From Frigidibacter mobilis (GTDB lineage Bacteria > Pseudomonadota > Alphaproteobacteria > Rhodobacterales > Rhodobacteraceae): DNA of 64,000 nt. A program made the translations under genes and the position numbers. Position 1 is the stretch's first letter. Each line of letters begins with the position of its first letter. The notes below the pieces were generated by a model. It had not been told where the DNA came from, did not search any database, and saw only the letters and a program-made list of their open reading frames with translations. The DNA lies in the NCBI RefSeq assembly GCF_001620265.1, contig NZ_CP012661.1, positions 3,578,501 to 3,642,500 on the forward strand, given 5' to 3'. Shown piece after piece: positions 18,532 to 37,045 of this stretch.

Positions 18532-18549
18532 CGTGGCCGGTTGACGCGG
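18524..18549. repeat. Tandem 13-bp repeat before the GntR gene
   Basis: Two adjacent 13-bp units, CCGGTTGACGTGG (18524–18536) and CCGGTTGACGCGG (18537–18549), differ at one base and overlap the end of the metalloprotease gene. Each contains TTGACG, a plausible –35 element; the second places its –10 region over the GTGATCAC palindrome at 18561. The repeat may have duplicated a promoter element. Confidence 0.6.
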
Positions 18550-18560: not shown

Positions 18561-18568
18561 GTGATCAC
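18561..18568. promoter_or_regulatory. GTGATCAC palindrome at the GntR gene start (candidate autoregulatory operator)
   Basis: A perfect 8-bp palindrome (10 bp counting the flanking C…G) ends 8 nt before the ATG of the GntR regulator. The same 8-mer occurs in spaced pairs upstream of sucC and sdhC. It matches the GT-N4-AC pattern of FadR/FCD-type GntR operators. Its position over the promoter/start region would suit autorepression. Function inferred. Confidence 0.65.
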
Positions 18569-18576
18569 GCTGCACG

Positions 18577-19221
18577 ATGCACAAGCCTGTCCGCCTTCCC
18601 GAAACCGCCGCGCATGAGCGGATCTATCGCGCCCTGCGCCAGCAGATCATGCATGGCGAACTGGCACCCGGCCAGGCGCTGACGCTGCGAGGCCTGGGCA
18701 AGACGCATGGTGTGTCGATGACCCCGGCGCGCGAGGCGCTGCGGCGGCTGGCGGCGGAGGGCGCCCTGTCACTGTCGGCCTCGGGCCGGGTCGGCACGCC
18801 CGAGCTGTCGAACGAGCGCATCGAGGAACTGGCGATGCTGCGGGCGCTGATCGAGCCGGAACTGGCCAGCCGGGCTCTGCCGCGGGCCCATATGGCGCTG
18901 ATCGAGCGGTTGCAGGCGATCAACATGGCCAATGCCGAGGCGGTGGTGAAGCAGGATGCAGTCGGCTACATCCGCACCAATCTGGAATTTCACCGGACGC
19001 TCTACCTGCGTGCGCAGGCGCCGGCGATGCTGGCGATCGTGGAAACGGTCTGGCTGCAACTGGGGCCGACGATGCGGGCGCTCTACGGGCGGCTGCGCCG
19101 CTCGGAGGCGCCGCCGCATCACCGCATCATCATTGCTGCGCTGAAGGCGGGGGACGAGCCGGGGTTGCGGCTGGCGGTGCGCACCGATGTGACGCAGGGG
19201 CTGCGGCACCTGGCGGGTTAG
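18577..19221 (+). CDS. GntR-family transcriptional regulator (FadR/FCD subfamily), candidate TCA-cycle regulator
   Basis: A 214-residue GntR protein: winged helix-turn-helix at about residues 13–75 (HERIYRALRQQIMHGELAPG…LGKTHGVSMTPAREALRRLAAEGAL) and an all-helical FCD effector domain (EELAMLRALIEPELASRAL, NLEFHRTLYLRA with a metal-ligand histidine, HHRIIIAALKAGD). No Shine–Dalgarno is visible, so the message may be leaderless or weakly translated; a GTGATCAC site sits just upstream. It is convergent with lpdA, the last gene of the suc cluster, across a shared terminator. Given identical sites at sucC and sdhC, I infer it regulates 2-oxoglutarate dehydrogenase, succinyl-CoA synthetase and succinate dehydrogenase genes. 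Regulators called AkgR and CceR control TCA genes in relatives; I cannot tell whether this is one of them. Confidence 0.85.
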   Translation: MHKPVRLPETAAHERIYRALRQQIMHGELAPGQALTLRGLGKTHGVSMTPAREALRRLAAEGALSLSASGRVGTPELSNERIEELAMLRALIEPELASRALPRAHMALIERLQAINMANAEAVVKQDAVGYIRTNLEFHRTLYLRAQAPAMLAIVETVWLQLGPTMRALYGRLRRSEAPPHHRIIIAALKAGDEPGLRLAVRTDVTQGLRHLAG

Positions 19222-19223
19222 GG

Positions 19224-19246
19224 CCGGCCCGGTTCACCCGGGCCGG
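19224..19246. terminator. Bidirectional hairpin between GntR gene and lpdA
   Basis: A 9-bp perfect stem (CCGGCCCGG at 19224–19232, CCGGGCCGG at 19238–19246) with a 5-nt loop lies between the convergent stops of the GntR gene (19221) and lpdA (19261). No U-run follows on either strand, but position and strength suit a shared terminator in a GC-rich genome. Confidence 0.65.
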
Positions 19247-19260
19247 ATCACCTTGCAATA

Positions 19261-20649
19261 TCAGGCGTGTATCGCCCCGTCGCCGCAGGCAAGCGCCGCC
19301 TCGCGCACCGCTTCCGAGAAGGTGGGATGGGCGTGGCAGGTCAGCGCCACATCCTGGGCGGAGGCGCCGAATTCCATCGCCACGCAGATCTCGTGGATCA
19401 GGTCGCCGGCCGCCGGGCCGATGATGTGGCAGCCCAGAACCCGGTCGGTATCCTTGTCGGCGAGGATCTTCACGAAGCCCTCGCCCATGAACACCGCCTT
19501 GGCGCGGGCATTGCCCATGAAGGGGAACTTGCCGACCTTGTAGGCGCGGCCGGCCTCTTTCAGTTGCTCTTCGGTCTGGCCGACGCTGGCAACCTCGGGC
19601 GAGGTGTATATGACGCCGGGGATGACGCCATAGTTCACATGCCCATGTTTTCCTGCAAGAATTTCGGCAACAGCCATGCCTTCGTCTTCGGCCTTGTGGG
19701 CCAGCATCGGGCCGGGAACCGCATCGCCGAGGGCGTAGATGCCTTTCACACTGGTCTGGAAATGGTCGTCGATCCTGACCATGCCGCGGGGCAGCATCTC
19801 GACCCCAAGCGCCTCCAGACCGAGGCCGGCGGTATAGGGTTTGCGGCCGGTGGCGACCAGCACGGTATCGGCCTCCAGCGTCGCCTCGCTGTCATCCTTG
19901 CGCAGTTTGTAGGTGACGGTGGCCTTGCCCTTTGCCACGTCAACCTTCTGCACGGCGGCGCCCATGATGAACTCAAGCCCCTGTTTCACCAGCATTTTCT
20001 GGAAGGCCTTGACCACCTCTCCATCCATGCCGGGGGTGATGGCGTCGAGGTATTCGACGACGGTGACCTTGGCGCCGAGGCGGGCGTAGACGGAACCCAT
20101 TTCGAGGCCGATCACGCCGGCGCCGATGACGACCAGGGATTTCGGGATCTTGCCGAGCGACAGGGCGCCGGTGGAGGTGACGACGGTCTGTTCATCGACT
20201 TCCACGCCGGGCAGCGAGGCGGGTTCCGAGCCGGTGGCGATGACGATGGACTTCGCCTCGTGGACCTCATCCCCGACCTTGACCTTGCCGGGCTCAACGA
20301 TCGAGCCCCAGCCTTTCAGCCAGGTGACCTTGTTCTTCTTGAACAGGAACTCAATGCCCTTGGTGTTGCCGTCCACCACATCTTGTTTGTAGGCGAGCAT
20401 CTGAGCCCAATCCACAGTGGGAGCCTTGCCCTTCAGGCCCATCTTGGCGAAGTTGTGTTCCGCCTCGTGCAGGTGGTGGGTGGCGTTCAGCAGCGCCTTG
20501 GACGGGATGCAGCCGATGTTGAGGCAGGTGCCGCCAAGCGTCTCGCGGCCCTCGACACAGGCGACCTTCAGGCCGAGTTGCGCGCAGCGGATGGCGCAGA
20601 CATAGCCGCCGGGGCCGGCGCCGATCACGATCACATCAAAGCTTGCCAT
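19261..20649 (-). CDS. lpdA: Dihydrolipoyl dehydrogenase (E3)
   Basis: FAD-dependent E3 subunit (462 residues) that reoxidises dihydrolipoamide of the 2-oxoglutarate dehydrogenase complex with NAD. FAD-binding [11 protein letters not shown] is at the N-terminus, the redox disulfide is Cys42/Cys47 in [13 protein letters not shown], the NAD-binding [17 protein letters not shown] is in the middle, and the C-terminal [15 protein letters not shown] carries the catalytic His/Glu pair. It is the promoter-distal gene of the suc cluster, separated from sucB by two unrelated membrane-protein genes. As the genome shows no pdh genes here, this copy is most likely dedicated to OdhAB. Confidence 0.95.
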
Positions 20650-20739
20650 TTGGGGTCTCCTTCAAGCGTTTTCGGTGTCTGGAAACCGTATGGAAACGAT
20701 ATGGTTTTCATACATACGGGTTGCCACACGGGAATTCGA

Positions 20740-21135
20740 TCAGAACAGGGCGGCGAGGATCATCGCCACCGTCGCAAAGAAGCCGGTGCCCCAGATCACC
20801 GAACGCCAGGGCGTCCAGCCGAGGGCATAGGCGGGAACGTAGAGCACCCGCATCGCAAGGTAGATCCAGGCGCAGGCGGCGGTGAATCCGGTCGCCTGCC
20901 CGCCGAGCGTGACGACGACCACGGCGAGGGTGAAGAGGATCAGCCCCTCGAAATGGTTGTTCAGCGCGCGCTGCAGCCGGGCGGTGCGCGGGCTGAGCGA
21001 CCGAGAGGGCGCCCGGTCGCGGGGGCTGGAGGTGTAGCCGGTCCCCAGCTCCATATTCGCCGGGAGGGCGAAGAGCATGTATTGGACCGCTTGCAGGAGG
21101 CCGGCGAGGGCGAGGGCTGTGAGTTCGGGGGTCAT
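20740..21135 (-). CDS. MAPEG-family membrane protein
   Basis: A 131-residue four-helix membrane protein of the MAPEG superfamily (relatives of microsomal glutathione S-transferase and leukotriene C4 synthase). It has the ELTALALAGLLQAVQYMLFALPAN first helix, the QRALNNHFEGLILFTLAVVVV motif with the conserved asparagine/glutamate, and a last helix near VIWGTGFFATVAMILAALF. Its start overlaps the preceding gene's stop (ATGA). Bacterial members of this YecN-like type have no assigned reaction. It sits inside the suc cluster between sucB and lpdA and is presumably co-transcribed. Confidence 0.82.
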   Translation of the reverse strand: MTPELTALALAGLLQAVQYMLFALPANMELGTGYTSSPRDRAPSRSLSPRTARLQRALNNHFEGLILFTLAVVVVTLGGQATGFTAACAWIYLAMRVLYVPAYALGWTPWRSVIWGTGFFATVAMILAALF

Positions 21136-21644
21136 TTGATCGTGGCCCTGTAGCTGGTTTCTTCAGATATCTTGAAGTGGTTAGCCCCCAGCCACGCGAG
21201 AAAGTAGATCACGAGAGCCGGAGGGAAAAATACCGAAATCACTATGCACAGACCGGCAAACAAGAGCGGCTGGCGCACGAAGGTGGGAAGAACTCCGACC
21301 TTATCCAGTAGATCAATTTGAAAATTCCAGAGGGTGGCCAAGAGTGCGAGCACAGACCAGACAAGGCGCTCGAAGAAATCCCGGTTTGGCACGTCACTAA
21401 CCGAGTTTTCTGAAACCGCCTCTTGAGGCCTCTCCTGCACACTGGTCGCCGGCTCTACGCCTGCTGCCGCCTGCTTCGTTGCGCCGCCAATACTTCTGGA
21501 GATCAGCCACCCAATGAACGCACCCAGAGGAGTCAGAAAAACAGCTGCGTTGTAGGCTGTTCCGCCGACGGCAATCCCCATCGACGAGCCAAGAACAAGA
21601 CCAATGACCGCCCCTGTCACCATAAGTGCATTAGCTTGTGACAA
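21132..21644 (-). CDS. Hypothetical membrane protein, TTG start
   Basis: A 170-residue protein with two N-terminal membrane segments (MVTGAVIGLVLGSSMGIAVGG and AAVFLTPLGAFIGWLIS), a polar 40-residue linker, and two C-terminal ones (LVWSVLALLATLWNFQIDLL and PLLFAGLCIVISVFFPPALVIYFLAWL). The start is a TTG at 21644 with AGGAG 8 nt upstream; the first in-frame ATG at 21623 has none. The gene is noticeably more AT-rich than its neighbours, hinting at later acquisition within the suc cluster. It is translationally coupled to the MAPEG gene. Function unknown. Confidence 0.65.
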   Translation of the reverse strand: MSQANALMVTGAVIGLVLGSSMGIAVGGTAYNAAVFLTPLGAFIGWLISRSIGGATKQAAAGVEPATSVQERPQEAVSENSVSDVPNRDFFERLVWSVLALLATLWNFQIDLLDKVGVLPTFVRQPLLFAGLCIVISVFFPPALVIYFLAWLGANHFKISEETSYRATIK

Positions 21645-21684
21645 GGGCGGATCTCCTAGGTTTCAAGTGCGACGGGGACGTAGC

Positions 21685-23211
21685 TCAAATATCCACCAGC
21701 AACCGCCGCGGATCCTCCAGCGCTTCCTTGACGCGCACGAGGAAGGTCACGGCGCCCTTGCCGTCGACGATGCGATGATCGTAGCTCAGCGCCAGATACA
21801 TCATCGGGCGGATGACGATCTGGCCGTTCATCACGACCGGGCGGTCCTGGATCTTGTGCATGCCGAGGATGCCCGATTGCGGCGGGTTCAGGATCGGCGA
21901 GGACATCAGCGAGCCATAGACGCCGCCGTTGGAGATGGTGAAGCTGCCGCCCTGCATTTCGGCCATCGACAGCTTGCCGTCGCGGGCGCGCAGGCCAAGC
22001 TCGCCGATCTTCTTCTCGATCTGGGCAAAGCCCATCTGGTCGGCGTCGCGCACCACCGGGACCACGAGGCCCGAGGGAGTGCCGACGGCGACGCCCATGT
22101 GGACGTAATGCTTGTAGACCACATCGCCGCCGTCGATCTCGGCATTGACCTCGGGCACTTCCTTCAGCGCGTGGCAGCAGGCCTTCACGAAGAAGGACAT
22201 GAAGCCCATCTTCACGCCGTGCTTCTTCTCGAACTGGTCCTTGTAGGCGTTGCGCAGCTCCATGACGCCGGACATGTCCACCTCGTTATAGGTGGTCAGC
22301 ATGGCGGCGGTGTTCTGCGCTTCCTTCAGGCGGCGGGCGATGGTGGCGCGCAGGCGGGTCATCTTCACCCGTTCCTCGCGGGCGGCATCCTCGGCCGGGA
22401 CCGGGGCGCGCGGGGCGGAAGCGGGGGCCGGGGCGGAGGTCGATGCAGCCGGGGCCTTGGGGGCCGCGGCGGCGCGGGCGACGTCTTCCTTCATGATCCG
22501 GCCATCACGGCCCGAGCCGGTAACCTGATCGGAGCTGAGGCCAGCCTCGGCCATCGCCTTCTTGGCCGAGGGCGCGTCTTCCACGTCCTTCGCCTTGGCG
22601 GCGGGGGTGGCAGCGGCGGGGGCCGGCGCGGCCTCTTCCGACTTCGGCGCGGCGGGCGAGGCGGCGGCGCCTTCCGAGACCACGGCCAGCTTGGCCTTGG
22701 CGTCGACGGTGGTGCCCTCGGGTGCCAGGATCTCGGTCAGCACGCCGGCGACCGGGCTGGGAACCTCGACCGACACCTTGTCGGTTTCCAGCTCGCACAG
22801 CATTTCATCCTGCGCGACCGCGTCGCCCACCTTCTTGAACCAGGTGGCCACGGTCGCCTCGGTCACGCTTTCGCCCAGCGTCGGCACCATCACATCGGTC
22901 ATCTTGCCCTCTTTCGCGCCAGCTTCGGCTTCGGCGCCTTTTTTCGGCTTCACTTCTTCGGGGCCGGCATTCCCGGCCTCGGCGATCTGCGCAAGCAGCG
23001 CGGCAACCCCGACCGTGGTGCCTTCGGGCGCCACGATCTCCAGCAGTTTTCCGGCGGCGGGGGCAGGAACCTCCACCGTCACCTTGTCGGTCTCCAGTTC
23101 GCAGAGCATCTCGTCGGCGGCGACGGTGTCGCCGACCTTCTTGAACCATGTGGCGACGGTCGCTTCGGACACGCTTTCGCCAAGGGTCGGGACGCGGACT
23201 TCGATGGCCAT
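21685..23211 (-). CDS. sucB: 2-oxoglutarate dehydrogenase E2 (dihydrolipoyl succinyltransferase), two lipoyl domains
   Basis: E2 core of the 2-oxoglutarate dehydrogenase complex (508 residues). It has two tandem lipoyl domains: residues about 1–78 with Lys43 and 104–180 with Lys145, both in the ELETDK turn, joined and followed by Ala/Pro-rich linkers; then a peripheral E3-binding domain ([27 protein letters not shown]) and the catalytic domain ending in the SYDHRIVDG active-site motif. Many OdhB proteins have only one lipoyl domain. GGAGG lies upstream of the ATG and only 3 nt separate it from sucA, so the two are co-expressed. Confidence 0.96.
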
Positions 23212-23214
23212 CAG

Positions 23215-26175
23215 TTATCCTCCGACCGTTAGGGCTTCGTTGACCAGCGCTTCCTGCTCGGCCTTGTGGCGAGAGGCGAGGCCGGTGGCCGGCGAGGCAG
23301 AAGCGGCGCGGCCGACATAGCGGGCGCGGCCGTGGGTGGCGCCGATGCGGCCCAGAACCCATTCGAGATTGGGTTCGACAAAGGTCCAGGCGCCCTGGTT
23401 CTTGGGTTCTTCCTGGCACCAGACGATCTCGGCGCCCAGGAAGCGGCTGAGCTCCTTGACGATGGATTGCGCCGGGAACGGGTAGAACTGTTCCAGCCGC
23501 AGCAGGTAGACATCGTCGATGCCGCGCTTGTCGCGTTCGGCCAGCAGGTCATAATAGACCTTGCCCGAGCAGATGACGACGCGCTTGACCTCGGCATCGG
23601 GGGCCAGCTTGGTGGCGGAATGGCCCTTTTCGGCATCGTCCCACAGCACGCGGTGGAATTGCGAGCCGGTGGTGAACTCGGCGGCATCGGACACGGCCAG
23701 CGGGTGGCGCAGCAGGGATTTCGGCGTCATCAGCACCAGCGGCTTGCGGAAGCTGCGGTGGATCTGGCGGCGCAGGATGTGGAAGTAGTTCGCCGGGGTC
23801 GAGCAGTTGGCGACGATCCAGTTATCCTCGGCCGAGTTCTGCAAGAAGCGTTCGAGCCGGGCGGAGGAGTGTTCCGGCCCCTGCCCTTCGAAGCCATGCG
23901 GCAGCAGCATGACAAGGCCCGACATCCGCAGCCATTTGCGCTCGCCCGAGCAGATGAACTGGTCGAACATGATCTGCGCGCCGTTGGCAAAGTCGCCGAA
24001 CTGCGCCTCCCACATCACCAGCGCGTTCGGCTCGGCCAGCGAATAGCCGTATTCGAAGCCGAGGACCGCGTATTCCGACAGCATCGAGTCGATGGCCTCA
24101 TACTTGGCCTGGCCCGCGCGGATGTGGTTCAGCGGGAAGTAGCGTTCTTCGGTGGTCTGGTCGATGAAGGCCGAATGCCGCTGGCTGAAGGTGCCGCGGA
24201 TGCAGTCCTGCCCGGACAGGCGCACCGGATAGCCCTCGATGGCAAGCGAGCCGAAGGCCAGCGCCTCGGCTGTCGCCCAGTCGAAGCCGGCGCCGGTGTC
24301 GAACATCTTCGCCTTGGCGTCGAGCTGTCGGCCGACGGTCTTGTGCAGGTCGAACCCCTCGGGAACGCGGGTCAGCGCGGCGCCGATCTCGGCCATCGTT
24401 TCAGGGGCGATGGCGGTCTTTCCGGCCTGGTATTCGGCCCCTTCGGAATCGAGCCCGGACCAGCGTCCGTCGAGCCAGTCGGCGCGGTTGGGCTTGAAGT
24501 CCTTGCCGGCCTCGAACTCTTCGTTCAGCTTGGCCTGGAAGGCGGCCTTCATGTCCTCGATCTCGCCCTCGGGGATCAGGCCGTCCTTCACCAGACGCTC
24601 GGTATACAGCTGCAGCGTGGTCTTGTGCGACTTGATACGCTTGTACATCGCCGGGTTGGTGAACATCGGCTCGTCGCCTTCGTTGTGACCGAAGCGGCGA
24701 TAGCAGAAGATGTCCAGAACCACGTCCTTGTGGAACTTCTGGCGGAACTCGGTGGCGACCTTGGCGGCGTGGACCACGGCCTCGGGGTCATCGCCGTTGA
24801 CGTGGAAGATCGGCGCCTCGACCATCAGGGCAATGTCGGTCGGATAGGGCGAAGAGCGGCTGAAATGCGGCGCGGTGGTGAAGCCGATCTGGTTGTTCAC
24901 GACGATATGCATGGTGCCGCCGGTGCGGTGCCCGGTCAGGCCCGAGAGGCCAAAGCACTCGGCCACGACGCCCTGCCCTGCAAAGGCGGCATCGCCGTGC
25001 AGCAGCACGGGCAGCACCTGATGGCGGGTGGTGTCGCCCAGCTGGAACTGCTTTGCGCGGACCTTGCCCAGCACGACCGGGTTCACCGCCTCGAGGTGCG
25101 AGGGGTTGGCGGTCAGCGACAGGTGGACGGTGTTGCCGTCGAAGCTGCGGTCCGACGAGGCGCCGAGGTGGTATTTCACGTCGCCAGAGCCATCCACATC
25201 CTCGGGCTTGAAGCTGCCACCCTGGAATTCGTGGAAGATGGCGCGGTAGGGCTTGGACATGACGTTGGCCAGCACCGACAGACGGCCGCGGTGGGGCATC
25301 CCGATCACCACTTCGCGCACGCCAAGGCTGCCGCCGCGCTTGATGATCTGCTCCATCGCCGGGATCAGCGCCTCGCCACCATCGAGACCAAAGCGTTTGG
25401 TGCCCATGTACTTGACATGCAGGAACTTCTCGAAGCCCTCGGCCTCGACCAGCTTGTTCAGGATGGCACGGCGGCCTTCACGGGTGAAGGTGATTTCCTT
25501 GCCATAGCCCTCGATCCGCTCTTTCAGCCAGCTGGCCTGCTCGGGATCAGAGATGTGCATGTATTGCAGCGCGAAGGTGCCGCAATAGGTGCGCTTCACG
25601 ATGTCGAGGATCTGCCGCATCGAGGCGATCTGCAGTCCCAGCACGTTGTCGATGAAGATCGGGCGGTCCATGTCGGCTTCGGTGAAGCCGTAGGATTTGG
25701 GGTCCAGTTCCGGGTGCGGGGTCTGTTCCGTCATCCCCAGCGGGTCCAGATCGGCGGCGAGGTGGCCGCGGATCCGGTAGGCACGGATAATCATGATGGC
25801 GCGGATCGAATCCAGCACCGCGCGTTTGATCTGGTCATCGCTGACCGACACGCCCTTGGCGGTGGCGGCTTCCTTGATCTTGGCACCGGCGCCCTTGATC
25901 TCGCGCATGGCGGCCGGCCATTCGCCGGTGAGCGCGGCGGTCAGGTCATCATTTGGCATCGGCGGCCAGTCGGCGCGCGTCCAGGAGGCGCCGGCGGCCT
26001 CTTTCTTCACGTCCATCTCGGCATCGCCAAGGCTGCGGAAGAACTCGCCCCAGGCAGCATCGACCGCAGAGGGGTCGGCGGCATAGCGGGCGTAAAGCTG
26101 CTCGATATATTCCGCGTTATGGCCCTGCAGGAAGCTGGAGGCGTGCAGAAGATCGTTGGGGGATTGGTCGGTCAT
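23215..26175 (-). CDS. sucA: 2-oxoglutarate dehydrogenase E1 (thiamine diphosphate-dependent)
   Basis: E1 subunit of 986 residues, the expected length, decarboxylating 2-oxoglutarate and transferring the succinyl group to lipoyl-SucB. It begins with the short SucB-contacting helix (SSFLQGHNAEYIEQLYARYA), and contains the ThDP region (HGDAAFAGQGVVAECFGLS, then NNQIGFTT and FCYRRFGHNEGDEP) and the C-terminal transketolase-like half (GYSLAEPNALVMWEAQFGDFANGAQIMFDQF, LLPHGFEGQGPEHSSARLERFL). It is preceded by a 450-bp gap from sucD that contains strong hairpins, so it may have its own promoter or be subject to attenuation. Confidence 0.97.
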   Translation of the reverse strand: MTDQSPNDLLHASSFLQGHNAEYIEQLYARYAADPSAVDAAWGEFFRSLGDAEMDVKKEAAGASWTRADWPPMPNDDLTAALTGEWPAAMREIKGAGAKIKEAATAKGVSVSDDQIKRAVLDSIRAIMIIRAYRIRGHLAADLDPLGMTEQTPHPELDPKSYGFTEADMDRPIFIDNVLGLQIASMRQILDIVKRTYCGTFALQYMHISDPEQASWLKERIEGYGKEITFTREGRRAILNKLVEAEGFEKFLHVKYMGTKRFGLDGGEALIPAMEQIIKRGGSLGVREVVIGMPHRGRLSVLANVMSKPYRAIFHEFQGGSFKPEDVDGSGDVKYHLGASSDRSFDGNTVHLSLTANPSHLEAVNPVVLGKVRAKQFQLGDTTRHQVLPVLLHGDAAFAGQGVVAECFGLSGLTGHRTGGTMHIVVNNQIGFTTAPHFSRSSPYPTDIALMVEAPIFHVNGDDPEAVVHAAKVATEFRQKFHKDVVLDIFCYRRFGHNEGDEPMFTNPAMYKRIKSHKTTLQLYTERLVKDGLIPEGEIEDMKAAFQAKLNEEFEAGKDFKPNRADWLDGRWSGLDSEGAEYQAGKTAIAPETMAEIGAALTRVPEGFDLHKTVGRQLDAKAKMFDTGAGFDWATAEALAFGSLAIEGYPVRLSGQDCIRGTFSQRHSAFIDQTTEERYFPLNHIRAGQAKYEAIDSMLSEYAVLGFEYGYSLAEPNALVMWEAQFGDFANGAQIMFDQFICSGERKWLRMSGLVMLLPHGFEGQGPEHSSARLERFLQNSAEDNWIVANCSTPANYFHILRRQIHRSFRKPLVLMTPKSLLRHPLAVSDAAEFTTGSQFHRVLWDDAEKGHSATKLAPDAEVKRVVICSGKVYYDLLAERDKRGIDDVYLLRLEQFYPFPAQSIVKELSRFLGAEIVWCQEEPKNQGAWTFVEPNLEWVLGRIGATHGRARYVGRAASASPATGLASRHKAEQEALVNEALTVGG

Positions 26176-26625
26176 GTCTGGACCTCGTTGGCGGCAAGCC
26201 GGTTGTCGGTGCCCGGGATCGGGCGGGAGAGCGGGGCCGGGCAGAGCCGGGATGATCGGGCGGCGCGGTCAGGGGTCGGGGCGGGGGTCGGGAACCCAAC
26301 GCGGGCGGATGCGCCGGGGTTGCGAGCGCAAGCCGGGCACGCACCCTGACGGCGCGTCAAGGCGGGCGCGCGGGGCGCAGCAGGCAAGAGTGCGATGCAC
26401 GAAGGAGCGGGGAGCGATGCCAAAGCCCACACCTGCGGCGCCAGCCGCGTGGGGGCTTTGGCGCCTGCCGTGTTGCGCGCCCCGCGGGGGGCATCGCGCC
26501 TATGGCTGACCATGACCATCGAGGGTCGGGCTCCGGGTTGGCCCGTGCCGCACTGCGGCGATGGGCCTTTGCAGGTGAACAGAGTGCCGGAGCGGGGGCC
26601 GCTCCGGCACAAATTTGCGGCCTGA
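26176..26625 (-). other. 450-bp intergenic region between sucD and sucA with structured RNA elements
   Basis: No convincing gene is present. Read on the minus strand it holds the sucD 3' hairpin (26584–26610), a second long hairpin at 26419–26462 (outer 12-bp stem GCCAAAGCCCAC/GTGGGGGCTTTGGC with a 2-nt bulge, inner stem GCGGC/GCCGC), a short CCCCGCGGGG palindrome, and a very G+C-rich stretch down to the sucA start. An ordinary ribosome-binding site (GAGG) precedes sucA. The layout is that of a long structured leader or attenuator. No T-rich tail follows the second hairpin. Confidence 0.55.
26584..26610 (-). terminator. Strong hairpin downstream of sucD
   Basis: A perfect 12-bp stem (GTGCCGGAGCGG at 26584–26595 with CCGCTCCGGCAC at 26599–26610) and a 3-nt loop, 15 nt after the sucD stop. 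No U-tract follows in the sucD direction. It may be a terminator or a processing/stability hairpin giving different sucCD and sucAB transcript levels. Confidence 0.65.
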
Positions 26626-27510
26626 TTACAGGCTGATAGCTTTCAGCACGGCTTCGCCCAGACCGGCGGGGCTGTCGGCAACGATGATCCCGGCGGATTT
26701 CATCGCCTCGATCTTCGACTCCGCGTCACCCTTGCCGCCCGAAACGATGGCGCCGGCATGGCCCATGCGGCGGCCCGGAGGGGCGGTGCGCCCGGCGATG
26801 AAGCCGGCGGTCGGCTTCCAGCGACCGCGCCGCTTTTCATCGGCCAGGAACTGCGCGGCTTCTTCTTCGGCCGCGCCGCCGATCTCACCGATCATGATGA
26901 TCGAGTGGGTTTCGGGGTCGGCCAGGAACATTTCCAGCACGTCGAGATGCTCGGTGCCCTTGATCGGGTCGCCGCCGATGCCGACAGCCGAGGACTGGCC
27001 AAGGCCAACGTCGGTGGTCTGCTTCACGGCCTCATAGGTCAGCGTGCCCGAACGGGACACGACGCCGACAGAGCCGCGCTTGAAGATCGAGCCCGGCATG
27101 ATGCCGATCTTGCATTCGTCCGGCGTCATCACGCCGGGGCAGTTCGGGCCGATCAGCCGCGATTTGGAGTTCAGCAGCGCGCGCTTGACGCGCATCATGT
27201 CCAGCACCGGGATGCCTTCGGTGATGCAGACGATCAGCTCCATCTCGGCGTCGATCGCCTCGAGGATCGAGTCGGCGGCAAAGGGCGGCGGAACGTAGAT
27301 CGCCGAGGCATTGGCGCCGGTGCGTTCCTTGGCCTCGTGGACCGAGTTGTAGACCGGCAGGCCGAGATGCTCGGTGCCGCCCTTGCCCGGGGTCACGCCG
27401 CCGACCATCTTGGTGCCATAGGCGATGGCCTGTTCGGAGTGGAAGGTGCCCTGCGAGCCGGTGAAGCCCTGGCAGATGACCTTGGTGTTCTTGTCAACGA
27501 GAACCGCCAT
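26626..27510 (-). CDS. sucD: Succinyl-CoA synthetase (ADP/GDP-forming), alpha subunit
   Basis: Alpha subunit of 294 residues, which binds CoA and is phosphorylated on a histidine. The N-terminal CoA-binding Rossmann domain has [28 protein letters not shown], the phosphorylation-loop region [26 protein letters not shown] is in the middle, and the active-site histidine is in [15 protein letters not shown] near the C-terminus. With SucC it makes succinate and a nucleoside triphosphate from succinyl-CoA. It lies downstream of sucC, with a small broken secreted-protein gene between them. Confidence 0.96.
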
Positions 27511-27514
27511 CGGG

Positions 27515-28017: not shown

Positions 28018-28018
28018 T

Positions 28019-29212
<1,194 letters not shown>

Positions 29213-29576
29213 GGTAGCGTCCCATGCTGGTGCAATTCGGGGCTGAATGGCACAGCTTCCTTGATGGCAAAAGGGATTTCGGTGCAATCGGCGGTTTGTG
29301 GCCGCTTTTGCGGGTTTTGTGATCACGGGTTTGAAAGCTGTGATCACAATCCATTTCCGACCCGGAAAAGGGCAGGTTTCCGGCGATCTCCGACGCCGAA
29401 TCAGGTGGCGCTAACAGGGAGGGGGCAGGCGCCCGCTGAACACCCGGACTGATCCGGGGGCCATTGCGCCGGGCCCATGTCGACGGCGATCCCTAACATA
29501 CGCCGGTGATGTTGTTACCAAACCCGCTCTTGGCTATGACGCACAGGGTCATCAGCCGAGAGGGCCGCGCAACGCG
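29213..29576. promoter_or_regulatory. sucC upstream region (about 360 bp without a gene)
   Basis: The region holds the sucC leader and promoter on the minus strand and the start region of the divergent glycosyltransferase-like gene. The recognisable element is the pair of GTGATCAC palindromes (29319–29347). No convincing –10/–35 can be assigned by eye, no tRNA or small gene is evident, and the rest shows nothing I can support. Confidence 0.6.
29319..29347. promoter_or_regulatory. Paired GTGATCAC operators upstream of sucC
   Basis: GTGATCAC at 29319–29326 and at 29340–29347 (the latter extended to TGTGATCACA) are separated by 13 bp, 21 bp centre to centre, i.e. on one face of the helix. The same pair with the same spacing precedes sdhC. 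The spacer sequences differ, so it is the palindromes that are conserved. Likely bound by two dimers of a GntR/FCD regulator; activation or repression cannot be told without a mapped start site. Confidence 0.75.
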
Positions 29577-30431: not shown

Positions 30432-30449
30432 AAGTGCCCGATGCGAGAA

Positions 30450-30473
30450 GGGCCGCACCTGCCGGTGCGGCCC
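30450..30473. terminator. Bidirectional terminator between the glycosyltransferase-like gene and mdh
   Basis: Perfect 10-bp stem (GGGCCGCACC at 30450–30459, GGTGCGGCCC at 30464–30473) with a TGCC loop, in the 68-bp gap between convergent stop codons. On the plus strand it is followed by CCTTCGGTT, on the minus strand by TTCTCG; both give weak pyrimidine tails. Confidence 0.75.
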
Positions 30474-30499
30474 CCTTCGGTTCAGCCTCTGGCCAACGG

Positions 30500-31603
<1,104 letters not shown>

Positions 31604-31712
31604 CTATGTTTGCGCTAAAGAGCCGGCGCGCTGCGCGGGCACCGCCCGAAAACCGGGCGCGGGGGCCTGTGGCGGGCGGGCGATTCTGTGCAAAGCGAAG
31701 GACGAACCGGCC

Positions 31713-32456
31713 GTGCAAGACTCCGTGCTGTTCTGGGTGGCGGCGCTGGCCGCAGCCTTGCTGGTGGGGGCGGCCAAGGGCGGGCTGCCGGTGACGGGGA
31801 TGCTGGCAGTGCCGATCCTGTCATTGGTGATGCCGCCGGTGATGGCGGCGGGGCTGCTGCTGCCGGTCTATGTGGTGTCGGACATGTTCGGGGTCTGGGC
31901 GTTCCGCCATGCTTTCGACCGGCGCAATCTGGCGATCCTGATCCCGGGCGCGGTGGCGGGGATCGCGCTTGGCTGGGCGACGGCGAGCCTTGTGCCGGAC
32001 CGCGCGGTGACCGGGCTGGTGGGGCTGATCGGGCTGGTGTTCTCGGCAAACCTGCTGCTGCGTCGGACGGTCCCGCCAGAGCGGGGCGCCGCCGTGGCGC
32101 CAGGCCTGTTCTGGGGGGCCGTGGCGGGGTTCACCAGCTTCGTCAGCCATGCCGGCGCGCCACCCTATCAGGTCTACGTGCTGCCGCAGCGGCTGGAGAA
32201 GACCGTCTTCGCCGGAACCACAACGCTGTTCTTTGCGGTGGTGAACGCAGTGAAGCTGGTCCCCTACTGGGCGCTAGGGCAACTGTCGGTGGAGAACCTG
32301 AAGGTGGCGGCGGTGCTGGTGGTGCCTGCGAGCCTCGCGGTGTTCGCCGGGCTGAAGCTGGTCAAGGTGCTGCCCGAGAAGCTGTTCTTCGCGCTGGTGA
32401 CATGGGCGCTGCTGGCGGTATCGCTGCGGCTGATCTGGCAGGCTGCGGCGGGCTGA
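31713..32456 (+). CDS. TSUP-family permease (TauE/SafE)
   Basis: A 247-residue membrane protein with seven to eight hydrophobic segments and the duplicated TauE/SafE pattern (LLVGAAKGGLPVTGMLAVPILSLVMPP in the first half, GAVAGFTSFVSHAGAPPYQVYVLPQ in the second). TSUP proteins export or import sulfite, sulfonates or other small organic anions. The start is a GTG at 31713 with AAGGA 10 nt upstream; the frame is open to 31449 but that part is not protein-like. No sulfur genes are adjacent, so the substrate is open. Confidence 0.82.
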   Translation: MQDSVLFWVAALAAALLVGAAKGGLPVTGMLAVPILSLVMPPVMAAGLLLPVYVVSDMFGVWAFRHAFDRRNLAILIPGAVAGIALGWATASLVPDRAVTGLVGLIGLVFSANLLLRRTVPPERGAAVAPGLFWGAVAGFTSFVSHAGAPPYQVYVLPQRLEKTVFAGTTTLFFAVVNAVKLVPYWALGQLSVENLKVAAVLVVPASLAVFAGLKLVKVLPEKLFFALVTWALLAVSLRLIWQAAAG

Positions 32457-32459
32457 CGA

Positions 32460-32777
32460 TCAGGCGTCGGTGCCCTTGGGCGGCAGCGCATCGGCCATCG
32501 CCTCGTAATGCTGGCCCGAGGCCAGCAGGCAGGTACGGCCATCGGGCAGGGTAACGGTGATCGTCCAGGTTCCGGTGGCGTCGGAGGCGAAGACCTCGAC
32601 CACGGCATTTCCGGTGGCAAGGCCGATGCCGCGGCGGGTCTCGCCATAGGTGGCCGCCAGCCGCTCCACCACCGATGCGCGGTTCCCGCAGCTTGGGCCC
32701 GGATCGGCGAAGGCGGCCTGTGCGGCGAGCACGAAGCCCGCAAGGCCGAGGGAAAGCGCGAAGAGTTTGTGTTGCAT
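32460..32777 (-). CDS. Small exported hypothetical protein
   Basis: A 105-residue protein with a signal peptide (MQHKLFALSLGLAGFVLAAQAAFADPG). The mature part contains two cysteines (PSCGNRAS and GRTCLLAS), consistent with a disulfide, and the phrase GNAVVEVFASDATGTWTITVTLPDGRTC, typical of small Rhodobacterales periplasmic proteins of unknown role. It is convergent with the TSUP gene (3 nt between stops). Confidence 0.7.
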   Translation of the reverse strand: MQHKLFALSLGLAGFVLAAQAAFADPGPSCGNRASVVERLAATYGETRRGIGLATGNAVVEVFASDATGTWTITVTLPDGRTCLLASGQHYEAMADALPPKGTDA

Positions 32778-32973
32778 GACCTGTTGCCCCGATGCTGTGC
32801 CCCGGCAAAGGGGCGCGGTATGCGGAAGACTGCGGCCAGAGCGGGTAACAAACCGTTAACGATGCGCGCCAGGCAGTCGCTCCGCTGCGTCGCGGCAATT
32901 CCGGGGTTGCCGAATCTGCCGCATATGTGGTCCTTGGCGAAATAAAGTTGCGAGGAGAGAATCATGGCTGCGG

Positions 32974-33846
32974 TTGCTGACGGGCGCGCGCCCCTTCCGG
33001 TCGGTTCTGTATATCCCCGGCTCCAAGGAGCGGGCGCTGGAGAAGGCCAAGGATCTGCCGGCCGATGCGATCATCTTCGATCTGGAAGACGCTGTGGCGG
33101 CCGACGAAAAGCCGGCGGCGCGGGCGCTGCTGGCGCAGGTGCTGGCCGAGGCCGATTACGGCCCGCGCGCGCGGATCGTGCGGATCAACGGGCTTGACAG
33201 CGACTGGGGCCGCGATGACGTGGCGACCTTTGCCAAGGCGATTGCGGCCGGGGCCAAGGTCGATGCGATCCTGATCCCCAAGGTCTCGACCCCCGCGGAC
33301 CTTGATGCCGTGGCCGCGCTGATTCCCGATGTGCCGCTTTGGGCGATGATGGAAACCGCACTGGGGATGCTGAACGCGGCCAGCATCGCCGCGCATCCGC
33401 GGCTGGCCGGGATGGTGATGGGCACCAATGACCTCGCCAAGGAACTGGGCAGCCGGTTCCGCGCCGACCGCCTTGCCATGCAGGCGGGGCTTGGGCTGTG
33501 CCTGCTGGCGGCGCGGGCCTATGGGCTGACCATCGTCGATGGCGTCTACAATGCGTTCAAGGACGAGGCCGGGCTGCTGGCCGAATGCGAGCAGGGCCGC
33601 GACATGGGCTTTGATGGCAAGACCCTGATCCACCCGGCGCAGCTGGAGATCGCCAACATCGCCTTTGCGCCGTCGGAGGCCGAAATCGACCTGGCCCGCC
33701 GCCAGATCGCCGCGTTCGACGAGGCCGAGGCGCGGGGGCTGGGTGTCGCAGTCGTGGATGGCAGGATCGTCGAAAACCTGCATATCGTGACGGCGCGGCA
33801 GACTCTGGCAAAAGCGGAGGCGATTGCCGCGCTCAACGCAAGCTGA
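32974..33846 (+). CDS. mcl2: CoA ester lyase family protein, probable (3S)-malyl-CoA thioesterase (Mcl2-like); start region disrupted
   Basis: A CitE/HpcH-family protein of about 290 residues: FRSVLYIPGSKERAL at the N-terminus, the Mg-binding DAIIFDLEDAVA and MMETALGMLNA (catalytic-site Arg/Glu pair in VRING and ETA), then GTNDLAKELG. Length and neighbourhood (nnrU, DUF1737, mch, sdh) match R. sphaeroides mcl2, whose product hydrolyses malyl-CoA in the ethylmalonyl-CoA/glyoxylate network. The best ribosome-binding site (GAGGAGAG) serves an ATG at 32964 that is one frame off and reads MAAVADG before leaving the conserved frame; removing one G from the GGG at about 32981 would give MAAVADGARPFRSV. 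As it stands only a TTG at 32974 starts the correct frame. Confidence 0.82.
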   Translation: MLTGARPFRSVLYIPGSKERALEKAKDLPADAIIFDLEDAVAADEKPAARALLAQVLAEADYGPRARIVRINGLDSDWGRDDVATFAKAIAAGAKVDAILIPKVSTPADLDAVAALIPDVPLWAMMETALGMLNAASIAAHPRLAGMVMGTNDLAKELGSRFRADRLAMQAGLGLCLLAARAYGLTIVDGVYNAFKDEAGLLAECEQGRDMGFDGKTLIHPAQLEIANIAFAPSEAEIDLARRQIAAFDEAEARGLGVAVVDGRIVENLHIVTARQTLAKAEAIAALNAS

Positions 33847-33856
33847 AAGGCCAGCC

Positions 33857-34411
33857 ATGACGCTTCTGATCCTCGGACTTCTGCTGTGGTGGGGCGCGCA
33901 TCTGTTCAAGCGCGCCGCGCCCGACGCCCGCGCCAATCTGGGCGGGCGCGGCAAGGGTTATGTCGCGCTGGCGATTGGGGCAGCGCTGCTGCTGATGGTG
34001 ATCGGCTATCGCGGCGCCGAGTTCGTGCCTGTGTATTCGCCGCTGCCCGGCATGGGCCATGCCAACAACACGCTGATGCTGATTTCCGTGTTCCTGTTCG
34101 GGGTCGGCGGCACCAAGGGCACGCTCTACCCGAAGATGCGCCACCCGATGCTGTGGGGTACGGTGATCTGGGCGCTGGCGCATCTGCTGGTGAACGGCGA
34201 TCTGGCCTCGCTGGTGCTGTTCGGTGGTATCGGCGCCTGGGCCTTGGTGGAGATGGCCGTCATCAACCGCACGCCCTGGCAGCGGCCGGCGCCGGGACGC
34301 GGCATCAAGGGCGACGCGATGAACCTTGTGGGCACATTGGTGCTGCTCGGGTTGATCGCCGCCATCCATATCTGGCTGGGCCACAATCCATTCCTGGGGA
34401 CTTACGGATGA
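33857..34411 (+). CDS. nnrU: NnrU family membrane protein
   Basis: A 184-residue polytopic membrane protein of the NnrU family, first noted near denitrification genes but widespread in Rhodobacterales, with no proven biochemical role. About five hydrophobic segments are visible, beginning MTLLILGLLLWWGAHLFKR and including GHANNTLMLISVFLFGVG, the HPMLWGTVIWALAHLLVNGDLASLVLF family signature, and a C-terminal LVGTLVLLGLIAAIHIWLGHNPF. AAAGG lies 6 nt before the ATG. The stop overlaps the DUF1737 start (ATGA), and it follows mcl2 by 10 nt, so mcl2–nnrU–DUF1737–mch is one operon. Confidence 0.85.
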   Translation: MTLLILGLLLWWGAHLFKRAAPDARANLGGRGKGYVALAIGAALLLMVIGYRGAEFVPVYSPLPGMGHANNTLMLISVFLFGVGGTKGTLYPKMRHPMLWGTVIWALAHLLVNGDLASLVLFGGIGAWALVEMAVINRTPWQRPAPGRGIKGDAMNLVGTLVLLGLIAAIHIWLGHNPFLGTYG

Positions 34412-34611
34412 AACTCTATCGCCTGCTGACCGAAGACGACACCTCGGCCTTCTGCCACAAGGTCAGCCTTGCGCTGTCGAAGGGGTGGGAGCTGCATGGC
34501 GCGCCGACCTATGCCTTTGACGCGGCGCGCGGCGTGATGCGCTGCGGGCAGGCGGTGGTGAAGGATGTGCCCGGGGATTATCACCCCGAGCTGAAGCTGG
34601 GAGAGCAGTGA
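34408..34611 (+). CDS. DUF1737 protein
   Basis: A 67-residue cytoplasmic protein (MKLYRLLTEDDTSAFCHKVSLALSKGWELHGAPTY…) matching the small DUF1737 family, whose members carry the K-L-Y-R…GW-L-G-P pattern. It overlaps nnrU by four bases and abuts mch (the stop at 34611 is followed directly by the mch ATG), so it is tightly embedded in the ethylmalonyl-CoA pathway operon. Function unknown. Confidence 0.8.
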   Translation: MKLYRLLTEDDTSAFCHKVSLALSKGWELHGAPTYAFDAARGVMRCGQAVVKDVPGDYHPELKLGEQ

Positions 34612-35643
34612 ATGAAGACCAACCCGGGCCGGTTCTTTGAGGATTACCGCATTGGCGAGGTGATCGCCCATGCGGTGCCGCGCACGGTGTCGGGCGGGGA
34701 GCGCGCGCTCTACCATGCGCTTTATCCGGCGCGCGGCGCGCTTTATTCGTCGGACGCCTTCGCGCAGGCCTGCGGGCTGCCGCAAAGCCCGGTCGATGAC
34801 CTGATCGCCTTCCATACGGTGTTCGGCAAGACGGTGCCCGATATCAGCCTGAACGCGGTGGCGAACCTTGGCTATGCCGAGGGGCGCTGGCTGGCCCCGG
34901 TCTATCCCGGCGACACGCTGCGGGCACAGTCCGAGGTGATCGGGCTGAAGGAGAACTCGAACGGCGCTTCGGGAAATGTCTATGTGCGCACCGCCGGGCT
35001 GAACCAGCACGGGGTGACGGTGCTGGACTATGTCCGCTGGGTGATGGTGCGCAAGCGCAGCCCGGATGCGCCTGCGCCCGATCCGGTGGTGCCCGCCCTG
35101 GCCAAGGTGGTGGCGCCCGCCGACCTGGTGGTGCCGCAGGGGCTGACCTTCGAGGGCTACGACTTCGCGCTGGCCGGCGAGCCGCATCGCTGGGGCGATT
35201 ATGCGGTGGGCGAGCAGATCGACCATGTCGATGGCGTGACCATCGAGGAAGCCGAGCACATGATCGCCACGCGGCTGTGGCAGAACACCGCCAAGGTGCA
35301 TTTCGATGCCACCTTCCGGCCCGATGGGCGGCGGCTGATCTATGGTGGCCATGTCATCAGCCTGGCGCGGGCGCTGTCCTTCAACGGGCTGGCGAACGCG
35401 CAGATGATCGTGGCGCTGAACGGCGGTGCCCATGCCAACCCCTGCTTTGCCGGCGACACCGTCAAGGCCTGGTCCGAGGTGCTGGACAAGGCGGAAACCG
35501 CGGCCCCCGGTATTGGCGCGATCCGGTTGCGGCTGGTGGCGACCAAGCAGGGCGCGGAGCCGTTCGCGCTGCGCGGGGAGGCGGGCAAGTACCTGCCCGA
35601 GGTGCTGCTGGACCTGGATTACTGGGCGCTGATGCCGCTTTAG
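34612..35643 (+). CDS. mch: Mesaconyl-CoA hydratase (beta-methylmalyl-CoA dehydratase)
   Basis: MaoC-like double hot-dog hydratase of 343 residues, exactly the length of the R. sphaeroides enzyme. The N-terminal MKTNPGRFFEDYRIGEVIAHAVPRTVSGGERALYHALYP and the C-terminal domain with MIATRLWQNTAKVHFD and YGGHVISLARALSFNGL are characteristic. It hydrates mesaconyl-CoA to beta-methylmalyl-CoA in the ethylmalonyl-CoA pathway of acetyl-CoA assimilation, whose product is cleaved to glyoxylate and propionyl-CoA. Presence with an Mcl-type gene implies the organism uses this pathway in place of, or beside, the glyoxylate bypass. Confidence 0.92.
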   Translation: MKTNPGRFFEDYRIGEVIAHAVPRTVSGGERALYHALYPARGALYSSDAFAQACGLPQSPVDDLIAFHTVFGKTVPDISLNAVANLGYAEGRWLAPVYPGDTLRAQSEVIGLKENSNGASGNVYVRTAGLNQHGVTVLDYVRWVMVRKRSPDAPAPDPVVPALAKVVAPADLVVPQGLTFEGYDFALAGEPHRWGDYAVGEQIDHVDGVTIEEAEHMIATRLWQNTAKVHFDATFRPDGRRLIYGGHVISLARALSFNGLANAQMIVALNGGAHANPCFAGDTVKAWSEVLDKAETAAPGIGAIRLRLVATKQGAEPFALRGEAGKYLPEVLLDLDYWALMPL

Positions 35644-36773
35644 GCCCCTGCCCCGCCCTTGTCCGCGATCCATCGGGCGATGGCGGGCCAGGTCTGCTGC
35701 AGCGCCGGCGCGCCGATGAACAGGCCAAGGTGGTCGGTGGGCAGGGTCTGCTGCACGATCTCGGCCGCTGGCGTGCCCAGCAGGGCGGCGGCGGCCAGCA
35801 CCTGCGGCGCGGGGGCGATGGCGTCGGCCTCGCCCGCCAGCAGGTAGGCGGGGCAGGTCACATCGGCCAGCGACAGGGTGCAGCCAAGCGCGGTAAACCG
35901 GCCCTCGGCCAGCAGGTTCTGCTGAAACAGCTGCTCGATCACCTGCAGGTAGAAGCGCCCCGGAAGATCCAGCGCGGCATCGCACCAGCGCTGGAAGGCA
36001 TCGCTGCGGGACAGGTCGCCCTCTGCCGCAAACTCGCGGTGCAGTTCCAGCATCCGGCCGAGATAGTGACCCGGATTCAGGCTTTTCCAGCTCTCCATCA
36101 GATAGCGGCCAGACATCCGCCCCTGCCCCCAGCCAACCAGCTGGCGGTAAACCTCCAGCGGCAGCGCATGGGCCAGCATCCCCGGCTTGCCCTGCCCGGC
36201 CGAAAGGTCGATCGGCGCCCCGGCCAGCACCAGCGTGCACACCTTGTGCGGAAAGCAGGCCGCATACATCGCCGACATCCAGCCGCCCTGGCAGATGCCG
36301 ACCAGATTGACGGCGCCACCCAGATCGTCCACCGCCGCGTTCAGATCGGCCAGATAGCTGTCGATGCCCAGATCGCGCATCGGGGCGCTGGCGGATTTCC
36401 AGTCGGTGACCAGCACCCGCTGCAGCCCGCCGGCCAGCAGAACCTGCACCAGACTTTGCCCGGTCGCCAGGTCGACAAGCACGGGGCTATTGCCGGCATG
36501 GGGCGCGGCGATCAGTACGGGCACCGCATCCCCCCGCGCCTCTGTGGCAGAGAAGTCGCGCAGCAGCATCGTCTCCAGGTCAAGCGCTACGCGGTTGGGA
36601 CTGGCCCAGTCCGGCGGCGGGCGCGCCATCATGCCAGCGGCCGCGGCGGCGAAGCCGAACTCCCGTTGCAGCGCCCCCAACCAGGCGGCGCTTGCCGCAG
36701 CGCCGGCGGCGGCCGGCCAGAACAGAGCCGGCAATTCGGCAAAGCCGGGTGGGGTTTTGGGCGGTGTTGTCAT
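35640..36773 (-). CDS. PhaC-like alpha/beta hydrolase with cysteine nucleophile
   Basis: A 377-residue alpha/beta-hydrolase-fold protein resembling poly(3-hydroxyalkanoate) synthases. The lipase-like box is G-I-C-Q-G-G with Cys161 as nucleophile, and the triad is completed by Asp317 (GEADAIAP) and His348 (PTDHLGLFIG). At this length it is far shorter than class I PhaC (about 590) and near class III catalytic subunits (about 355), but no PhaE or phasin gene is adjacent. A thioesterase or PHA-mobilising role is also possible. The start at 36773 has GGGAG 9 nt upstream; the frame extends to 36878. It is convergent with mch, overlapping by 4 nt. Confidence 0.72.
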   Translation of the reverse strand: MTTPPKTPPGFAELPALFWPAAAGAAASAAWLGALQREFGFAAAAAGMMARPPPDWASPNRVALDLETMLLRDFSATEARGDAVPVLIAAPHAGNSPVLVDLATGQSLVQVLLAGGLQRVLVTDWKSASAPMRDLGIDSYLADLNAAVDDLGGAVNLVGICQGGWMSAMYAACFPHKVCTLVLAGAPIDLSAGQGKPGMLAHALPLEVYRQLVGWGQGRMSGRYLMESWKSLNPGHYLGRMLELHREFAAEGDLSRSDAFQRWCDAALDLPGRFYLQVIEQLFQQNLLAEGRFTALGCTLSLADVTCPAYLLAGEADAIAPAPQVLAAAALLGTPAAEIVQQTLPTDHLGLFIGAPALQQTWPAIARWIADKGGAGA

Positions 36774-36940
36774 GTCGCATCGCTCCCGCGCCGGTCTGCC
36801 GCGCGAGCCGTCGGCGCGCAGGCCGCGGGGCAGCATAGCAAAGGTGGGGGCCCTGCAGCAACGTGGCGCATTGACCACCCCGGTCGTGCGTCATCGAGAG
36901 TTCAGCCACCGGCGACAATCCGGCTACGTTAGCGCAAACC

Positions 36941-36969
36941 GTGATCACGGCCCGAAATTTCGTGATCAC
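36941..36969. promoter_or_regulatory. Paired GTGATCAC operators upstream of sdhC
   Basis: GTGATCAC at 36941–36948 (extended CCGTGATCACGG) and 36962–36969 are separated by 13 bp, 21 bp centre to centre, 153–181 bp before the sdhC start. Spacing and sequence are identical to the pair before sucC. This supports coordinated control of sdh and suc by one dimeric factor, most simply the GntR protein whose own start has a single copy. Confidence 0.75.
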
Positions 36970-37045
36970 AAAGGTGATTTTCTGCATTGCAAAACCGATC
37001 CCCAGCAGCTTTGAAAGCATCGGGGGCGTGACTTGCCCGAAAAAA

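What the first reader, a model, noticed from the sequence alone, without database searches (positions are those of the whole stretch)
18561..36969. A paired GTGATCAC operator links sdh, suc and an adjacent GntR gene: a probable TCA-cycle regulon
Seen: GTGATCAC occurs at 18561 (8 nt before the GntR ATG), 29319 and 29340 (before sucC), 36941 and 36962 (before sdhC). Both pairs have exactly 13 bp between the palindromes, i.e. 21 bp centre to centre, two helical turns. By eye I found no other copy in 64 kb, and a random occurrence of such an 8-mer in this composition is expected about once or less. All five are intergenic. Established: FadR/FCD-type GntR proteins bind palindromes of the form GT-Nx-AC. 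Inference: the GntR protein is autoregulated and controls suc and sdh through cooperative dimers. AkgR and CceR are described TCA regulators in relatives; I do not know whether this is one of them.
Basis: partly seen in the sequence, partly recalled or inferred. Interest (0 to 1): 0.88.

Follow-up and report, generated by a model that had tools for sequence, protein, structure and literature searches.

The report
Paired AkgR-type switch for TCA genes
Two matched pairs of a short DNA palindrome in front of the sucC and sdhC operons are very probably the binding sites of the neighbouring GntR protein, the local version of a known citric-acid-cycle activator (AkgR), and in the relatives examined their distance to the sdh promoter changes by whole turns of the DNA helix.

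Summary
The exact N13 pair occurs nowhere else in the 5-Mb genome. Pairs occur in 364 of 395 family genomes (reversed-pattern control 2 of 395), but in 6 of 381 other Alphaproteobacteria. Of 76 pair loci read, 70 precede sucC or sdhC. Pair and close GntR orthologue are present or absent together (361 both, 27 neither, 7 discordant), with at least 9 changes on a tree. GTGATCAC is reported for the Rhodobacter sphaeroides activator AkgR, and GntR protein RSP_0981 was predicted for the same operons: known in kind. Added here: (i) before sdhC the distance from pair to a conserved CGTGAC element falls at about 47, 57.5, 68 or 78 bp, whole helical turns, with at least 15 shifts on a tree, pointing to face-of-helix activation; (ii) a single site on the -10 of the regulator's own, probably leaderless, promoter in 56 of 80 named relatives, pointing to autorepression. 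Binding, expression and sequence orthology to AkgR were not tested.

The parts
18577..19221 (+). GntR/FCD regulator, AkgR-type (214 aa)
   Evidence: Pfam GntR and FCD; co-occurrence with the pair; fold like McbR/YncC
18561..18568 (.). single GTGATCAC over the predicted -10 of the regulator's own promoter
   Evidence: exact site before the start in 56 of 80 named orthologue loci; position fixed
18541..18546 (+). TTGACG, predicted -35 of the regulator's promoter
   Evidence: sequence; TTGA[CT] starts 18-20 bp before the site in 55 of 59 loci
29340..29347 (.). distal palindrome of the suc pair (sucC is on the - strand)
29319..29326 (.). proximal palindrome of the suc pair, 106 bp before the sucC ATG
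28019..29212 (-). sucC, first gene of the suc/OGDH cluster
   Evidence: frame and conserved start by tblastn; gene name from recalled family knowledge
19261..27510 (-). rest of the suc/OGDH cluster: sucD 26626-27510, sucA 23215-26175, sucB 21685-23211, a MAPEG gene 20740-21135, lpd 19261-20649
   Evidence: frames; Pfam for lpd and MAPEG; other names from gene order, not searched
36941..36948 (.). distal palindrome of the sdh pair
36962..36969 (.). proximal palindrome of the sdh pair
37027..37055 (+). conserved CGTGAC (37027-37032, predicted -35) and TA-rich -10 (37050-37055) of the sdh promoter, 57 bp after the proximal palindrome
   Evidence: a standard sigma-70 consensus scan finds no promoter here
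36928..36939 (.). GTTAGCGCAAAC, CceR-like core next to the sdh pair
   Evidence: sequence; GTT-N6-8-AAC is the predicted CceR motif (PMC4344238 passage); looser core enriched near pairs
37122..40873 (+). sdhC, sdhD, sdhA, a small gene, sdhB
   Evidence: frames; sdhA found by homology in 25 of 30 relatives; names from recalled family knowledge

Best explanation
This is the AkgR-type TCA-cycle regulon of a Frigidibacter-like member of the Rhodobacteraceae. The FCD-GntR protein at 18577-19221 binds GTGATCAC. Two dimers side by side on one face of the DNA (21 bp apart) upstream of sucC and of sdhC activate weak promoters; at sdh the palindromes centre about 97 and 118 bp before the predicted transcription start, and activation needs the right helical face, as in class I activation. 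One dimer on the single site over the -10 of the regulator's own, probably leaderless, promoter represses it. Shown here: the sites, their conservation, spacing and phasing, and their co-occurrence with the gene. Inferred: binding, sign of regulation, start sites, cooperativity. The effector is unknown; invariant N135, H139, H182 and D204 suggest a metal or carboxylate pocket (the comparison with other FCD proteins is recalled).
For: Pair in 364 of 395 family genomes, control 2 of 395; 70 of 76 pairs read precede sucC or sdhC; pair and close orthologue co-occur, Fisher p 3e-34, or 2e-27 at a looser cut-off, with at least 9 presence/absence changes on a tree; three of the four genomes with gene but no exact pair keep a pair with 1-2 mismatches at sucC and/or sdhC; distances to CGTGAC in whole-turn classes; autosite fixed on the -10; AkgR motif GTGATCAC and 'transcriptional activator' (PMC6365646 passage); RSP_0981 predicted for sucCD, sdh and OGDH (PMC4344238 passage).
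Against: No binding or expression data. The genome has 24 FCD proteins, and at least 4 others resemble this one at E<=1e-10. Three genomes have the pair without a close orthologue (G018, G105, G225; G018 and G225 are 91-93% complete assemblies) and G139 has the gene without a pair found. 24 of 80 named orthologue loci lack an exact autosite. Five of 33 sdhC loci lack the GTGAC element and 186 of 395 genomes lack the exact N13 pair-plus-CGTGAC pattern.
Confidence: 0.85

Rival explanations
1. The pairs are bound by another protein, such as a paralogous FCD regulator or an unrelated dimeric factor, and the adjacent GntR only shares a similar site.
For: 24 FCD proteins in the genome; GTGATCAC also precedes a different GntR-like gene in another family (L254) and is proposed for PS417_07240 in Pseudomonas (PMC6365646 passage); three genomes have the pair without a close orthologue.
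Against: Joint presence and absence of pair and this gene (361/27 against 7 discordant of 395) with repeated losses, and the autosite at this gene. Paralogues were not tested for co-occurrence.
Confidence: 0.07
2. The pairs are repressor sites: the protein represses suc and sdh from upstream, for example by looping or by hindering another activator, rather than activating them.
For: GntR-FCD proteins are often repressors (recalled); looping also gives helical phasing; CceR-like cores lie close to the pairs (12 of 33 sdhC, 10 of 37 sucC).
Against: The sdh pair lies well upstream of the predicted promoter; AkgR is called an activator; the promoter elements are weak (no sigma-70 consensus match); in 23 genomes read without pair and gene the CGTGAC element is also gone in 21.
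Confidence: 0.1
3. Chance or a general repeat without regulatory meaning.
For: Single copies of the 8-mer occur in coding-like frames.
Against: Enrichment in the window, only two exact N13 pairs in the genome, conservation in 364 of 395 family genomes with control 2 of 395, fixed place and phase.
Confidence: 0.005

Closest known systems
AkgR (RSP_0981) of Rhodobacter sphaeroides (Imam, Noguera and Donohue 2015; primary paper not held, known from memory and from passages of PMC6365646 and PMC4344238)
   Same: GntR family; motif GTGATCAC; predicted targets sucCD, sdh and OGDH; called an activator
   Different: Sequence orthology and gene place not compared. RSP_0981 is numbered next to the sdh genes RSP_0974-6, whereas here the gene lies beyond lpd. 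The paired N13 spacing, phasing and autosite are not in the passages I saw; whether the primary paper has them is unknown to me
PS417_07240 of Pseudomonas simiae, deoxyribonate cluster regulator (PMC6365646 passage)
   Same: Same palindrome GTGATCAC; 32% identical to AkgR according to that paper
   Different: Other target genes; a palindrome at -47 to -40 of the start codon, no pair mentioned in the passage
E. coli McbR/YncC (PDB 4p9f)
   Same: Closest solved structure: TM-scores 0.86 and 0.87, 27% identity; best PDB sequence match
   Different: Different role (recalled); the NCBIfam PRK11414 equivalog cut-off is missed, 80.8 against 225 bits
CceR (RSP_1663, LacI family)
   Same: Acts on central carbon genes, sdh among them in R. 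sphaeroides (PMC4344238 and PMC11323563 passages)
   Different: Other protein family and motif (GTT-N6-8-AAC); may be a partner at these promoters

Membership tests
GntR superfamily, FCD group | GntR helix-turn-helix plus FCD domain | tested here: met
   Pfam GntR 55.6 bits (cut-off 27) and FCD 66 bits (cut-off 24.3); model and fold search
AkgR regulon | operator GTGATCAC | tested here: met
   motif from PMC6365646 passage
AkgR regulon | targets are suc/OGDH and sdh operons | tested here: met
   70 of 76 pair loci before sucC or sdhC; targets of RSP_0981 from PMC4344238 passage
AkgR regulon | regulator is the orthologue of RSP_0981 | tested here: inconclusive
Inferred only from motif, targets and family-wide co-occurrence
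AkgR regulon | direct binding and activation | not testable with these tools
   needs experiment
Class I type activator site | site upstream of, not overlapping, the -35, at distances restricted to one helical face | tested here: met
   promoter elements are predicted, contact with RNA polymerase not testable here
E. coli PRK11414 (NCBIfam equivalog) | curated score cut-off | tested here: not met
   80.8 against 225 bits

The most novel reading that the evidence does not exclude
The pair works only when it faces the sdh promoter, so evolution of the pair-promoter distance is quantised in whole DNA turns: at least 15 changes between classes on a tree of 49 loci, steps of -1, +1 and +2 turns, and no out-of-phase element among the sdhC loci checked. 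The same regulator silences itself through one site on the -10 of a leaderless promoter. This would be a two-mode, position-coded circuit spread across the Rhodobacteraceae and lost repeatedly as a unit.
Probability: 0.6. Interest if true: 0.6.

Novelty: new member of a known kind. Interest (0 to 1): 0.45.

Why it matters
It gives a regulator candidate for the two central TCA operons in most sampled Rhodobacteraceae, including Paracoccus denitrificans, where a recent paper places sdh and 2-oxoglutarate dehydrogenase outside the CceR regulon and suggests other control (PMC11323563 passage) and where the pair stands before sdhC. The natural series of whole-turn spacings amounts to a helical-phasing experiment done by evolution and makes the mode of activation testable with a few promoter variants.

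Tried and rejected
Chance and general repeat: rejected. CRP/FNR-type half-sites: only considered; half-sites without a spacer do not fit (recalled, no call). Distance to the start codon as the constraint: narrow for sucC (99-115 bp in 32 of 37) but not for sdhC (107-191 bp), so at sdhC the promoter element is the anchor.

Rows set aside: 7 of the 150 rows lie off the whole-turn classes (53, 74, 76, 76, 83, 87, 92 bp). Checked: G002, G033 and G346 are sdhC pairs read in the direction away from sdhC, and towards sdhC they have GTGAC at 57, 58 and 59; G134, G176 (second row), G295 and G394 are sucC pairs. The p values (0 to 6e-4, by assumed repeat) were computed with these rows still in and treat genomes as independent. 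Of the other 143 rows I verified the sdhC target only for those fetched.

Limits: the phase classes and the E cut-off of 1e-70 were set after seeing the data; the co-occurrence table was counted by eye from the rows. The 20 loci were picked for unusual distance, so one search is not a random sample. The 7 named loci are only partly independent: Frigidibacter albus (L309) is the same place as row G182, four are Paracoccus, and the others may be among the 59 genomes not listed there. The 16 genomes were chosen from orthologue carriers. A strict GTT-N6-AAC site near pairs is rare (3 of 37 sucC, 4 of 33 sdhC); the looser core that is enriched was chosen after looking. A standard sigma-70 scan finds no promoter at sdhC in the window. 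Naming the R. sphaeroides orthologue failed.
Full report
Observation. GTGATCAC occurs five times in the window at the stated places and nowhere else in it (100 shuffles: mean 0.91, largest 4). Both pairs are GTGATCAC-N13-GTGATCAC. In the whole genome the 8-mer occurs 28 times; of the 23 copies outside the window 19 are in coding-like frames and 4 were not assigned by a crude test. The exact N13 pair occurs only at sucC and sdhC; the next best places have 2 mismatches. The regulator is 98% identical to that of Frigidibacter records.

Conservation. A pair with any spacer of 5-30 bp is present in 364 of 395 genomes of the family (325 of 351 genera); the reversed pattern in 2. The output listed 75 places; I read 74 of them plus the two own ones: 37 precede sucC, 33 precede sdhC, 6 neither. 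Of the 70, 64 have spacer 13 and 6 spacer 12. The six others are one N13 pair before a class II fumarase gene (L223, named from its sequence), one N5 double site before the GntR gene itself (L226), and four with spacers 10, 10, 19 and 23 and no target assigned. Among 387 genomes of the class 12 have a pair with spacer 11-15, 6 of them from the family; of the other 6 of 381, three (G563, G650, G695) have G+C-rich spacers like gene-internal repeats and one (L254) lies upstream of a different GntR-like gene. Of 16 named genomes, chosen from carriers of the orthologue, 16 have at least one pair, and the one read in each is before sucC or sdhC; Paracoccus denitrificans has it before sdhC.

Regulator. 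The gene at 18577-19221 encodes a GntR-FCD protein, close in fold to E. coli McbR/YncC (model pLDDT 86.9, pTM 0.83, 26 sequences). N135, H139, H182 and D204 are invariant in the 26 aligned sequences. That these positions match FCD metal ligands, with Asp in place of the last His, is recalled knowledge. Counting by eye over 395 genomes, 361 have pair and close orthologue (E<=1e-70), 27 neither, 3 the pair only (G018, G105, G225), 4 the orthologue only (Fisher p 3e-34). With a cut-off of 1e-40 the table is 361 both, 23 neither, 3 pair only, 8 orthologue only (p 2e-27). Of the four 'orthologue only' genomes, G035 keeps both pairs with one mismatch each, G258 the sucC pair with one, G367 the sucC pair with two; for G139, in some 370 contigs, no such pair was found. 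Of the 27 'neither' genomes 23 had an SdhA match and were read: none has the pair before sdhC (one has a single near-match), and a [CG]GTGAC element remains in 2 of 23. On a tree of 57 loci presence/absence changes at least 9 times, so the link is not one historical event, although many forks are weakly supported.

Own promoter. In 56 of 80 named orthologue loci an exact GTGATCAC lies 13-40 bp before the inferred first residue, and in 13 of 30 unnamed loci one lies upstream (some species overlap). In the 78 named loci with enough upstream DNA, 59 have a site with at most one mismatch, against 0 of 78 in a stretch further upstream. The site starts 18-20 bp after TTGA[CT] in 55 of 59 and ends 8-9 nt before an in-frame start codon in 52 of 59. 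It therefore sits where the -10 should be, and transcription should start at or next to the start codon. I infer autorepression of a leaderless message.

Target promoters. Before sdhC a CGTGAC element, with a TA-rich -10 sixteen bases further on, keeps a set distance from the pair. In the first 33 sdhC loci, counting from the end of the proximal palindrome to GTGAC, 25 lie at 57-60, one at 48, two at 78-79, and five have no such element. A family-wide search for N13 pair plus CGTGAC within 35-95 bp hits 209 of 395 genomes, control 0. Of the 150 rows listed, 143 have the element at 46-47 (8), 56-59 (127), 68-69 (4) or 77-79 (4) bp. The other 7 are sdhC pairs read the wrong way (3, in phase when read towards sdhC) or sucC pairs (4). 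These are steps of one DNA turn. Of 50 loci with a verified sdhC, 45 have GTGAC 40-95 bp away and all 45 are in these classes (9, 26, 4, 6; three genomes counted twice, 20 loci picked for unusual distance); on a tree of 49 of them the class changes at least 15 times. Seven named loci fit too: four Paracoccus at 46-47, three others at 56-57, one of which is a row already counted. In the window the element is at 57 bp and the predicted start near 37062, so the palindromes centre near -97 and -118. For sucC a T-rich -35-like stretch lies 46-49 bp from the pair, about one turn nearer. Helical phasing without overlap is the mark of an activator that must face RNA polymerase; looping is the alternative.

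Comparison with the known. [quoted passage not shown] sphaeroides. PMC4344238 (passages) predicts GntR protein RSP_0981 for sucCD, sdh and OGDH. The primary AkgR paper is not held; from memory it names RSP_0981 AkgR and reports direct activation of TCA genes. Searches for AkgR with CceR, GTGATCAC with GntR, AkgR alone, RSP_0981, GntR with TCA terms, and CceR with TCA cycle (listings only, apart from passages of PMC6365646, PMC5507952, PMC11323563, PMC4419725, PMC4344238 and PMC7471390) showed no title or abstract on paired spacing or phasing; the primary paper may contain some of it. CceR-like cores are enriched beside the pairs (12 of 33 sdhC and 10 of 37 sucC loci, about 1.3 and 1.4 expected). 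PMC11323563 (passage) reports sdh and OGDH outside the CceR regulon in P. denitrificans.

Verdict. A real, family-wide TCA-cycle regulon of AkgR type. The kind is known; the fixed pair, the whole-turn phasing and the autosite are what this work adds. Binding and sign of regulation remain inferred here.

Noticed in passing
L223 (G037), pair at 1001-1029: An N13 pair lies directly before a gene that reads as class II fumarase, a further TCA-cycle target in one genome.
   Followed up: partly
G122 C8:374318-374367: Three palindromes in a row at 21-bp steps, about 10 kb from the regulator gene, where the sucC side lies in the window; target not verified.
   Followed up: no
L055 and L308, position 323 (Amylibacter kogurei): A single GTGATCAC directly before the inferred mdh start, placed like the autosite of the regulator.
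   Followed up: no
L254 (G520, another family), about 992-1020: An N13 pair upstream of a different GntR-like gene (29% identity to this one) that diverges from a TonB-receptor-like gene: same palindrome, other regulon.
   Followed up: partly
L226 (G166), sites at 1001 and 1014: Two palindromes 5 bp apart upstream of the regulator gene itself.
   Followed up: no
window 36928-36939: GTTAGCGCAAAC, a CceR-like core directly upstream of the sdh pair; similar cores are enriched near pairs in relatives.
   Followed up: partly
window 37046-37062: Inverted repeat CCGCTATT-G-AATAGCGG over the predicted -10 and start of the sdh promoter, reported by the scan as terminator-like on the - strand.
   Followed up: no
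L311 (Paracoccus denitrificans): Exact pair before sdhC with the promoter element one turn nearer (46 bp), as in the three other Paracoccus sdhC loci read.
   Followed up: yes
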